Shown here piece after piece: positions 39,463 through 42,119 of a DNA stretch of 64,000 nt. Under the pieces are notes generated by a model. The model ran no database searches. It saw nothing but the letters and a program-made list of their open reading frames with translations, and had not been told where the DNA came from. A program made the position numbers and the translations under genes. Within the stretch, counting starts at the first letter, position 1. The number at the start of each line of letters is the position of its first letter. Origin of the DNA: a virus; IMG/VR virus record IMGVR_UViG_3300042446_000849, positions 55,377 through 119,376 of that record. One strand, written 5' to 3'.

Positions 39463-39729
39463 TCACAATGGTAGTTTTCCCCGTTTTTTAAAATAATTTT
39501 GATCTTCTGCTTCTGATTGAATCTTATCTTTCAGAGACTGATTAATTAATTTAGACACAGACTCAATATCAATGTCTACTTCATTACAATATTGTATAAC
39601 AGCATCCATATAACCGATCTTTTCTCTAAACACTCGTTCTTCTATGTGTAGTGAAAATTCATTAGGTGATCTAAATTTTTTAGTAATAATCAAACTATCA
39701 GTTAAAATATATTGTACTTCTTCGTTCAT
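39463..39729 (-). CDS. 33: Late transcription co-activator gp33
   Basis: An 88-residue protein. The pattern LHIEERVFREKIGYMDAVIQ, YCNEVDIDIESVSKLINQ and a short hydrophobic C-terminus (RGKLPL) matches gp33, which bridges host RNA polymerase and the sliding clamp at late promoters. Its presence agrees with the TATAAATA elements upstream of structural genes. It overlaps the bilin reductase stop by 4 nt. Confidence 0.8.
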   Translation of the reverse strand: MNEEVQYILTDSLIITKKFRSPNEFSLHIEERVFREKIGYMDAVIQYCNEVDIDIESVSKLINQSLKDKIQSEAEDQNYFKKRGKLPL

Positions 39730-40397
39730 TGTGTTTCCGGGAAAAGAACCTCATCCATAAAATTCATAAACACATCTTTATCTACTCCGAAGTTAATCAT
39801 CATCGCAGGTGTATGTGGATTTAATTTTTGGTTCTTACAGTAATTGTTATGTGCTTCTTTATAATTGTCTTTTGACTCTATACCTACATTATATAGGTAA
39901 TAGTCTAGATTGTCAATAACCGTAGATGCTAGTTGATCAAATTCTTCTTGAGTTTGAATGTTTCCCGCCGCCAGCATATTTGGACTGAAAATGCGCTTAG
40001 CCCAATCTGGTAATTCTCTTGGTTTGTTCCAAGTAATTTTTGACATCTTATCCTGGTACCAATCATATGTTTTTGAGTCGCCAGTATGTGAGAAATCGTG
40101 GAATGCACCTGTAATTTTGTTTTGTCCGCATACTATGTCAAAACCAAAAATGGGGTCTGAGGAATTGTGATGCGGGAAGATACACATATGCATGACCCAC
40201 ATCTTTTTATGTTTCGTGGCATCTACAATCTCAATGTGTGCTCTACGAAATTTGTCAGAAGTCCAAATATAATTTTCCCACGTAAAATTATCAGACTCGT
40301 GTCTATATTCTGGCTTCAAATCTTCAGGTGTGTATGACTCTAATTTTTTAATAATATCTTTTGCAAGCTTGTTGGCCTGCGGCCACACTTCAATCAT
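39726..40397 (-). CDS. Ferredoxin-dependent bilin reductase (PcyX/PebS/PcyA family)
   Basis: A 223-residue enzyme of the FDBR family, which reduces biliverdin IX-alpha using ferredoxin. Family signatures are RRAHIEIVDA (Glu56), MWVMHMCIFPHHNSSDPIFG (His70) and FGFDIVCGQNKITGAFHDFS (Asp87). The 17-residue spacing from His to Asp equals that of the catalytic pair in PcyA (His88/Asp105), as I recall the numbering. The product cannot be fixed from sequence by eye; phage members make phycoerythrobilin (PebS, PcyX). It sits directly after heme oxygenase with an 8-nt overlap, forming a heme-to-bilin cassette. Confidence 0.88.
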   Translation of the reverse strand: MIEVWPQANKLAKDIIKKLESYTPEDLKPEYRHESDNFTWENYIWTSDKFRRAHIEIVDATKHKKMWVMHMCIFPHHNSSDPIFGFDIVCGQNKITGAFHDFSHTGDSKTYDWYQDKMSKITWNKPRELPDWAKRIFSPNMLAAGNIQTQEEFDQLASTVIDNLDYYLYNVGIESKDNYKEAHNNYCKNQKLNPHTPAMMINFGVDKDVFMNFMDEVLFPETQ

Positions 40398-40923
40398 TAT
40401 AATCTTTCAACATATTAATATTATGAGTAAATGCCACATTGGCTTCTTCGGCTAATGATACATTTAATTTCTGTCTCACATTTGCAATTAGTTGTGGTAA
40501 ATTTTCAAACTGAAACATTCTATTACTACCAGGTAATAATTTAGCTAACATTTGTCCGCCGAACATATCGCCCATATGTCTTACATATACATGAGCTAAC
40601 ATTTTAGTTGTATCGTCTTTAATTGTTTCTAAATAATTAATATAATTAATTGTTGACGCATTTAACTTGCCACTGGATGCCCCATCGCCTATTAATTCAT
40701 TGTAGTCTAATTCGATTGCTTTTGCTCTTTTAATATTGTCTATACCTTTAAAAATACCTAGTCGTGAACCATGCCACTCTAAATTTTGATACAGTACTAG
40801 CAATTGATACAAATAGTCAATATATTTGTCTCTGTCAACTTGACCTTTGAAAATTGATTTAATAAAAGGTTGCTCTTCAGCTTCCTTGTGTTTTTCCGAA
40901 GTTAATTCTTTTAATGTACTCAT
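40390..40923 (-). CDS. ho1: Heme oxygenase (biliverdin-forming)
   Basis: A 177-residue heme oxygenase that opens heme to biliverdin, CO and iron with ferredoxin as likely donor. The proximal His12 lies in SEKHKEAEEQPFIKSI (the HxxAE motif), and the distal helix motif is VRHMGDMFGGQMLAKL (GDxxGG). It is shorter than bacterial enzymes of about 220-240 residues, as phage forms often are. It precedes the bilin reductase in the same operon and overlaps the 2OG oxygenase by 4 nt. Confidence 0.92.
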   Translation of the reverse strand: MSTLKELTSEKHKEAEEQPFIKSIFKGQVDRDKYIDYLYQLLVLYQNLEWHGSRLGIFKGIDNIKRAKAIELDYNELIGDGASSGKLNASTINYINYLETIKDDTTKMLAHVYVRHMGDMFGGQMLAKLLPGSNRMFQFENLPQLIANVRQKLNVSLAEEANVAFTHNINMLKDYND

Positions 40924-41541: not shown

Positions 41542-41577
41542 AAAAAAAGTAGGTTATTCTGTTACGAGGAAACCTAC
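41542..41577 (-). terminator. Rho-independent terminator of the tmRNA gene
   Basis: On the minus strand GTAGGTT (41577-41571), a 15-nt loop and AACCTAC (41555-41549) form a perfect 7-bp stem followed by seven T residues (41548-41542). It ends the tmRNA transcript just before the oxygenase start. Confidence 0.8.
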
Positions 41578-41595
41578 CGAAACCCTAAGCAGCGT

Positions 41596-41628
41596 TTAGG
41601 CTGCTAAAGCGAACTGTTCGTCGTTTGC
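41596..41628 (-). other. tmRNA tag-peptide reading frame
   Basis: The frame GCA AAC GAC GAA CAG, then TTC GCT TTA GCA GCC TAA, encodes ANDEQFALAA and stop; with the tRNA alanine the tag is A-ANDEQFALAA. The six bases before the resume codon are GTAAAT, with A at -4 as required in E. coli. The ending ALAA is a ClpXP-type degron. E. coli's encoded tag is ANDENYALAA. Confidence 0.9.
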
Positions 41629-41734
41629 ATTTACGTTTTTTGCTTCTTCGGCCGAGTTACCTCAACCCTGCGGGTTTCACATTCCCGAGCTGTCCACTCT
41701 GTTACTAATTGCCCTGTCGAAACTATTCAGGCCC

Positions 41735-41849
41735 CTCAAAAAGATTTTTCCATCTGTCTAGTGCTTCGAAGTAGCTGATCCAGACACATCCTTCACATCC
41801 TCTACCACAACACGTAGTTGGTTCTTGTGGCCTAGGATAAAAATCTTTT
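41735..41849 (-). other. tmRNA intervening segment with processing stem
   Basis: The 115 nt between the encoded CCA and the coding-piece 5' end. Its ends are complementary: AAAAGATTTTT (41849-41839) pairs with AAAAATCTTTT (41749-41739), extending the acceptor stem by 11 bp. The interior has a CCACAA/TTGTGG hairpin. The segment should be cut out by host RNases to give two RNA pieces. Confidence 0.75.
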
Positions 41850-41909
41850 TGGTGGACCTGGGGGGATTCGCACCCCCGTCCAGAACACCGTTCTCTTTGC
41901 TTCATACAG

Positions 41910-42119
41910 CTATAAAATATTAGTTAAATCTCCAACATGCACATATCCATCAACTTTTAGATTAGGATCGCTAATACACTCTAACAAGACATGCCTTTTA
42001 TCAACATCGTCAGGATGAAAGTGTTTGACAACAAATTCATGTCCTCGATATTTGTCATAAAAAGGTTTGAATGGTGGTTTGTAAACCTTATCTAAAAATT
42101 TAACTTTTTGTGATAACAT
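41910..42119 (-). CDS. Small hypothetical protein
   Basis: A 69-residue protein ([20 protein letters not shown]) with a later [14 protein letters not shown]. It looks like a small beta-barrel with basic N-terminus; no family recognised. It ends within the first bases of the tmRNA acceptor piece, so the tmRNA could be processed from the same transcript. Confidence 0.55.

What the first reader, a model, noticed from the sequence alone, without database searches (positions are those of the whole stretch)
41549..41915. Phage-encoded circularly permuted tmRNA
The minus strand shows all marks of a permuted ssrA: T-arm and encoded CCA before the 5' half, a GGGCCUG/CAGGUCC acceptor stem with a G3:U pair, P2 complementarity between the pieces (ACAGCT with AGCTGT), an ANDEQFALAA tag and a terminator. 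tmRNA is known in some mycobacteriophages in one-piece form; I am not aware of a well-described two-piece tmRNA in a T4-like phage. A phage copy could keep ribosome rescue running or redirect tagging during infection.
Basis: partly seen in the sequence, partly recalled or inferred. Interest (0 to 1): 0.95.

Follow-up and report, generated by a model that had tools for sequence, protein, structure and literature searches.

The report
Phage tmRNA gene with nested protein gene
A T4-like virus of bacteria carries its own ribosome-rescue RNA in a known circularly permuted, two-piece form, and the stretch between the two pieces, normally discarded spacer, encodes a conserved small protein; in related viruses this spacer is an exchangeable slot for many different small genes.

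Summary
Minus strand 41911-41542 holds an intact circularly permuted tmRNA gene (ARAGORN; Rfam RF04321 121 bits, E 4e-23; best subtype RF01850, beta) with tag ANDEQFALAA. Its novelty claim is out of date: two-piece tmRNAs of T4-like phages are published (Melnitz, PMC9004378), in the same gene neighbourhood.

What is new lies between the two pieces. The window's 115-nt intervening segment (41849-41735) encodes an Oxidored-like domain (PF09791, E 1e-11); among relatives 69 of 77 substitutions there fall on third codon positions (dN/dS 0.01). In 175 viral permuted tmRNA genes the segment is 25-491 nt and closed by a covarying end helix (10.65 of 12 pairs; 7.63 when ends are re-partnered). Of 21 segment clusters over 200 nt, 17 hold one ORF filling the segment (0.04 expected), including thioredoxin and DUF2061 proteins. 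Near-identical segments sit in tmRNA genes whose 5' halves are only 43-62% identical, so they behave as swappable cassettes. Sampled bacterial permuted tmRNAs have 5-48 nt segments (one has 116). I found no description of this in the held literature. Processing, translation and function are inferred, not shown.

The parts
41850..41911 (-). acceptor (3') piece of the permuted tmRNA: P2 strand AGCTGT 41911-41906, T-arm, acceptor 3' strand CAGGTCC 41860-41854, ACCA 41853-41850
   Evidence: RF04321 and RF01850 alignments, ARAGORN, sequence
41735..41849 (-). 115-nt intervening segment, closed by the end helix AAAAGATTTTT / AAAAATCTTTT and ending TGAG; its inside codes in frame for an Oxidored-like domain
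   Evidence: helix; coding:
41723..41905 (-). nested ORF, 60 aa plus stop, [60 protein letters not shown]; starts in the acceptor piece, stops in the 5' half; the PF09791 match (residues 24-54) lies wholly in the intervening segment
   Evidence: start codon inferred
41549..41734 (-). 5' (mRNA-like) piece: acceptor 5' strand GGGCCTG 41734-41728, P2 strand ACAGCT 41693-41688, pseudoknot region, tag
41596..41628 (-). tag reading frame ANDEQFALAA with stop TAA
   Evidence: sequence
41542..41577 (-). final stem GTAGGTT / AACCTAC with seven T, terminator-like
   Evidence: sequence; not listed by the scan (loop too long for its rule)
41910..42119 (-). upstream ORF, 69 aa, whose stop codon ends 4 nt before the ATG of the nested ORF (possible translational coupling)
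   Evidence: coupling inferred from spacing

Best explanation
The phage makes its own alanine-type two-piece tmRNA from a permuted gene read as part of a longer gene block. In the primary transcript the acceptor stem runs on into a helix formed by the two ends of the intervening segment, and UGAG (UGAU in relatives) next to the 5' half faces ACCA of the acceptor end and can partly pair with it, so the immature CCA is covered. Host RNase P cutting before GGGCCUG and host 3'-end processing at CCA would free the two tmRNA pieces and release the intervening RNA. In this phage lineage the intervening segment is also a protein gene. In most relatives with long segments it carries its own Shine-Dalgarno sequence (inside the helix), start, ORF and stop (often the UGA of UGAU). 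In the window the conserved Oxidored-like domain lacks its own start and is in frame with an ATG in the acceptor piece, so the protein would be translated from unprocessed transcript, starting at 41905, perhaps coupled to the upstream ORF. The tmRNA, with host SmpB, would rescue stalled ribosomes and add a normal ClpXP-type tag; the cargo gene is co-transcribed with it. Shown by sequence: the tmRNA, the helix, the coding selection, the cassette exchange. Inferred: processing, translation, function.
For: Permuted tmRNA. PF09791 in the window's segment, E 1e-11, 44.8 bits versus cut-off 24. Five distinct relatives: substitutions by codon position 4/4/69 in that frame, dN/dS 0.01; the other two frames do not behave so. 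Wider set of 48 loci: 323/250/1324 over 168 pairs (pairs are not independent). End helix in 84 segment clusters: 10.65/12 pairs versus 7.63 +- 0.15 re-partnered (0 of 2000 reach it), slid 5.9-6.9; unbiased first scan alone 10.66 versus 7.15 +- 0.22. Window precursor folds with acceptor stem continuing into the segment helix, z -3.7. ORFs filling the segment: 17/21 clusters of 200-600 nt versus 0.04 expected, 12/18 of 110-200 nt versus 0.79; first scan alone 7/9 versus 0.04 and 6/9 versus 0.6. Cargo domains: thioredoxin E 4e-21 and DUF2061 E 3.5e-20, GNAT and CxxCxxCC. In two cargo families 23 of 28 copies lie between a tmRNA acceptor end and a 5' half, four show one of these and are cut at a contig end, and one 66% relative is elsewhere. 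43 of 138 pairs have segments at least 90% identical but 5' halves under 75% identical. After shortening the segment ARAGORN still of 34 long-segment genes as permuted tmRNA, mostly with tags ending in AA.
Against: No expression data. The window's nested ORF has no Shine-Dalgarno site and no start inside the segment; one of 30 distinct segment-borne copies (L361) lacks the acceptor-piece ATG. Segments under 80 nt show no excess of ORFs (7 versus 6.4 expected), so the segment need not code. A few cargo clusters show weak or no purifying selection (L159, L213), though with few changes. Seven of 34 long-segment genes were not called by ARAGORN even after shortening. The cultured Xanthomonas and Stenotrophomonas phages with this helix show no clear ORF.
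Confidence: 0.8

Rival explanations
1. An ordinary phage permuted tmRNA; the intervening segment is structural spacer and its ORFs are chance or passengers without consequence.
For: Short segments show the helix without ORF excess; bacterial segments of 5-48 nt are spacers, many with a hairpin; the tmRNA halves are intact by themselves.
Against: dN/dS 0.01 in the window's segment, Pfam domains in several segments, 17/21 long segments filled by one ORF.
Confidence: 0.1
2. Decayed or captured host ssrA (pseudogene or imprecise excision relic), as proposed for prophage ssrA fragments.
For: Phages are known to pick up ssrA pieces (discussed in PMC9004378).
Against: All halves, stems and tag are intact; about 175 viral copies with covarying structure; the 5'-half motif TGNATAGTTTCGACAGGGC was found in no tmRNA of the GTDB genome collection (the sole hit lies in a coding ORF); same gene neighbourhood as Melnitz.
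Confidence: 0.03
3. A modulator: the phage tmRNA competes for host SmpB or redirects tagging to alter infection, rather than simply supporting rescue.
For: No SmpB in the record; a tmRNA-like-domain-only RNA like that of mycobacteriophage DS6A strongly inhibits tmRNA (PMC4131195).
Against: Here the tag ends in ALAA and the RNA is complete, unlike the tag-less DS6A form.
Confidence: 0.12

Closest known systems
Methylophilales phage Melnitz two-piece tmRNA (MZ577097; PMC9004378)
   Same: T4-like phage, permuted tmRNA, same neighbourhood (PhoH, PDDEXK nuclease, small ORFs, tmRNA, gp33, gp59, gp32), segment with end helix TAAACACTT/AAGTGTTTA and TGAT; it also holds an unannotated ORF behind a Shine-Dalgarno-like sequence
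   Different: alpha-type tmRNA, tag ANDNYVPVDYALAA, glutamine riboswitch just downstream; the window is beta-type and no riboswitch was found in it
Betaproteobacterial permuted tmRNA (RF01850)
   Same: best-scoring Rfam subtype, permuted order, ANDERFALAA-like tag
   Different: the bacterial loci matched to this model here have segments of about 5-43 nt and no ORF; 5'-half motif differs
tmRNA genes interrupted by a group I intron, some with homing endonuclease genes (tmRNA_intron, PMC11915505)
   Same: a protein gene inside a tmRNA gene
   Different: that intron sits in the T-loop and self-splices, and the mature RNA is one piece; here the protein gene sits between the halves of a permuted gene and no group I intron family matches in the window
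Cultured Xanthomonas phages Rb1 and X1, Stenotrophomonas phage QDWS359
   Same: permuted tmRNA, not annotated as such, with segments of 107-126 nt and the same end helix plus TGAT
   Different: no clear ORF in the segment; other tags

Membership tests
permuted tmRNA (RF04321) | covariance model match above the gathering score | tested here: met
   121 bits versus 47, full length
permuted tmRNA (RF04321) | acceptor half with encoded CCA upstream of the mRNA-like half | tested here: met
   CCA ends 41850; 5' half starts 41734 on the minus strand
permuted tmRNA (RF04321) | alanine identity pair G3:U70 | tested here: met
   GGGCCUG / CAGGUCC read from sequence
permuted tmRNA (RF04321) | tag reading frame ending in a ClpXP-type tail and stop | tested here: met
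   ANDEQFALAA*
permuted tmRNA (RF04321) | two mature RNA pieces made from one precursor | not testable with these tools
   needs RNA data
permuted tmRNA (RF04321) | charging with alanine and work with SmpB | not testable with these tools
   no SmpB in the record; host SmpB assumed
beta_tmRNA (RF01850) | match above gathering score and best in its clan | tested here: met
   101.5 bits versus 84
Oxidored-like domain (PF09791), nested ORF | Pfam gathering score | tested here: met
   44.8 bits versus 24, residues 24-54
Oxidored-like domain (PF09791), nested ORF | translated protein | not testable with these tools
   coding selection only
group I intron tmRNA | group I intron in the T-loop region | tested here: not met
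   T-arm intact; no intron family in the window

The most novel reading that the evidence does not exclude
The intervening segment of phage permuted tmRNA genes is a dedicated, exchangeable gene cassette whose expression is gated by tmRNA maturation. The end helix hides both CCA and the Shine-Dalgarno site. RNase P cleavage releases an mRNA whose UGA stop lies one nucleotide from its 3' end, so slight trimming makes it a non-stop message that tmRNA itself would tag. Cargo would then be made mainly when trans-translation is saturated, much as for the bacterial rescue factor ArfA.
Probability: 0.15. Interest if true: 0.88.

Novelty: new variant of a known kind. Interest (0 to 1): 0.72.

Why it matters
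Spacers of permuted tmRNA genes are usually treated as discarded linkers. Here one tmRNA locus yields a structured RNA and, by coding selection, a protein, and across many viral contigs the spacer acts as an exchangeable slot for thioredoxin, acetyltransferase, membrane and metal-binding proteins. That gives a new place to look for hidden phage genes (ARAGORN missed many of the long-segment tmRNAs), a natural bifunctional RNA, and a testable question: how translation of a nested gene and processing of the surrounding tmRNA are reconciled.

Tried and rejected
Novelty as first two-piece tmRNA of a T4-like phage: rejected by Melnitz. Riboswitch in the locus: no Rfam match in the window except tmRNA. 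Phage SmpB: none in the record. Host by tmRNA identity: a scan with GGGCCTGAATAGTTTCGACAGGG found nothing and TGNATAGTTTCGACAGGGC only a chance site in a Legionella ABC ATPase gene; host left open, the beta-type match is only a hint. Cultured phage with the same gene: none close; the nested domain has no tblastn match in 50,697 phage records. ORFs in segments under 80 nt: not above chance. My first parser for bacterial segments failed on many loci and was replaced. Sharkady and Williams 2004 is not held, so older remarks on intervening segments could not be checked.

Full report
1. The observation. ARAGORN finds one gene in the window, a permuted tmRNA on the minus strand with tag ANDEQFALAA. 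Rfam agrees: RF04321 121 bits, E 4.4e-23, and within its clan the beta-type model RF01850, 101.5 bits. Acceptor stem with G3:U, T-arm, encoded CCA, P2, tag and a final stem followed by T residues can all be read from the sequence. The record is a linear 119,376-bp viral contig without SmpB.

2. The surroundings. The locus lies in a T4-like genome: baseplate proteins and gp32-like ssDNA-binding protein, gp59 helicase loader and PhoH, gp33-type late coactivator. Order on the minus strand: PhoH, 2OG oxygenase, endolysin, MazG-like protein, exonuclease, a 69-aa ORF, tmRNA, a protein of PHROG family 2954, heme oxygenase, bilin reductase, gp33, gp59, gp32. In phage Melnitz the tmRNA lies between a PDDEXK nuclease plus small ORFs on one side and gp33, gp59 and gp32 on the other, with PhoH upstream. 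So the position is shared between distant T4-like phages, which suggests that the site, if not the sequence, is old.

3. What is known. Melnitz's two-piece tmRNA and 53 distinct two-piece tmRNAs in phage records were published in 2022 (PMC9004378). The current tmRNA database counts 79 phage sequences and 11,946 permuted ones (PMC11915505). A phage permuted tmRNA by itself is therefore a new member of a known kind.

4. Relatives. A scan of viral contigs for the 5'-half motif and one for an acceptor end followed by TAAGGA gave 175 permuted tmRNA genes (the window and three cultured phages included) whose intervening segment could be cut out. Segment length runs from 25 to 491 nt. The second scan is biased towards segments that begin with a Shine-Dalgarno-like sequence, so key tests were repeated on the first scan alone.

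5. The end helix. The first 12 nt of the segment and the 12 nt before its last four pair at 10.65 of 12 positions in 84 segment clusters. Re-partnered ends give 7.63 +- 0.15 and none of 2000 reached the observed value; slid ends give 5.9-6.9. First scan alone: 10.66 versus 7.15 +- 0.22. The last four bases are TGAT in 66 of 84 clusters and can pair with ACCA apart from one A-C mismatch (read from sequence). In the window, acceptor stem and segment helix form one long stem in the predicted fold, z -3.7. A shorter hairpin with TTTTGAT is also seen in some bacterial segments (for example L303, L309), so the helix looks inherited and enlarged in phages.

6. The segment codes for protein. With ends fixed and the inside shuffled, ORFs that fill the segment are expected in 0.04 of 21 clusters of 200-600 nt; 17 are seen. 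For 110-200 nt it is 12 of 18 versus 0.79, for 80-110 nt 11 of 22 versus 3.6, and for 40-80 nt there is no excess. First scan alone: 7 of 9 versus 0.04 and 6 of 9 versus 0.6. Typical layout: CCA, then TAAGGA, a start at nt 9-23, and a stop that is often the UGA of TGAT; many products end in VSL because the helix strand is also coding. Pfam names some of them: thioredoxin and DUF2061, GNAT, CxxCxxCC and Oxidored-like. dN/dS is 0.10-0.27 in eight families; in others it is higher or rests on few changes.

7. The window's own segment. Its 115 nt encode [38 protein letters not shown], a PF09791 Oxidored-like domain (E 1e-11). Among five distinct relatives 69 of 77 substitutions are at third positions in this frame and dN/dS is 0.01; over 48 loci the third-position excess holds. 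There is no start codon in the segment. In 29 of 30 distinct segment-borne copies the frame is open back to an ATG in the acceptor piece, whereas free-standing copies have their own start, MYPRPQEP or similar (L388-L390). In L388 and L389 such a copy lies just before a tmRNA-type T-arm, a possible source of the nested form. The 60-aa reading would thus overlap both tmRNA halves. The upstream ORF stops 4 nt before this ATG, so coupled initiation is possible; this is inference.

8. Cassettes. For two cargo families found by protein search, 23 of 28 copies lie between a tmRNA acceptor end and a 5' half, four more show one of these and are cut at a contig end, and one distant relative is elsewhere. 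Segments 90-100% identical occur in tmRNA genes whose 5' halves are 43-62% identical, with different T-arms (43 of 138 pairs have segments at least 90% and 5' halves under 75% identical). The segment is therefore exchanged separately from the tmRNA body. How is not shown; homologous recombination at the conserved T-arm and acceptor sequences is the simplest idea.

9. The tmRNA stays intact. With the segment shortened in silico, ARAGORN of 42, 32 of 38, 34 of 35 and 27 of 34 genes in rising length classes.

10. Bacterial control. Of 32 bacterial loci, segments run from 5 to 48 nt in 31 and are 116 nt in one (L307); I saw no ORF-filled segment. These were mostly the top-scoring matches of one search, which favours short segments, so a bacterial case is not excluded.

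11. Mechanism and limits. Processing by host RNase P and 3' enzymes, translation of the nested frame, charging, SmpB use and any benefit to the phage are inferred from known tmRNA biology. Searches of the held open-access literature for intervening segments or ORFs in permuted tmRNA genes found no such report, but key older papers are not held.

Noticed in passing
39726-40923 minus: Heme oxygenase (PF01126) and ferredoxin-dependent bilin reductase (PF05996) genes two genes from the tmRNA: a phage bilin-pigment cassette in a phage with a beta-type tmRNA.
   Followed up: partly
L284 45984-46436 (Melnitz): The published Melnitz tmRNA also holds an unannotated ORF in its intervening segment (MFKWLSKTRLVVITRDYFRERNRKADAKIPKYLSGTRSVYD..., read).
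   Followed up: partly
L152, L153, L154: Xanthomonas phages Rb1 and X1 and Stenotrophomonas phage QDWS359 carry permuted tmRNAs that their records do not annotate as such.
   Followed up: partly
L047, L058, L094, L118, L161, L182: Some related phage tmRNAs have very long predicted tags, such as ANADTFEFGALNFTGNTVRGAANEGRFALAA; not checked against ARAGORN misreading.
   Followed up: no
L388, L389: A free-standing Oxidored-like ORF lies just upstream of a tmRNA-type T-arm, a possible ancestor of the nested form in the window.
   Followed up: partly
L307: One bacterial alpha-type permuted tmRNA has a 116-nt intervening segment without an evident ORF.
   Followed up: no
L164, L183, L202 and others: A second viral tmRNA core with D-loop GGATCGATT and T-arm GGGGGCAGTGCCC, sharing cargo segments with the window's type.
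   Followed up: partly
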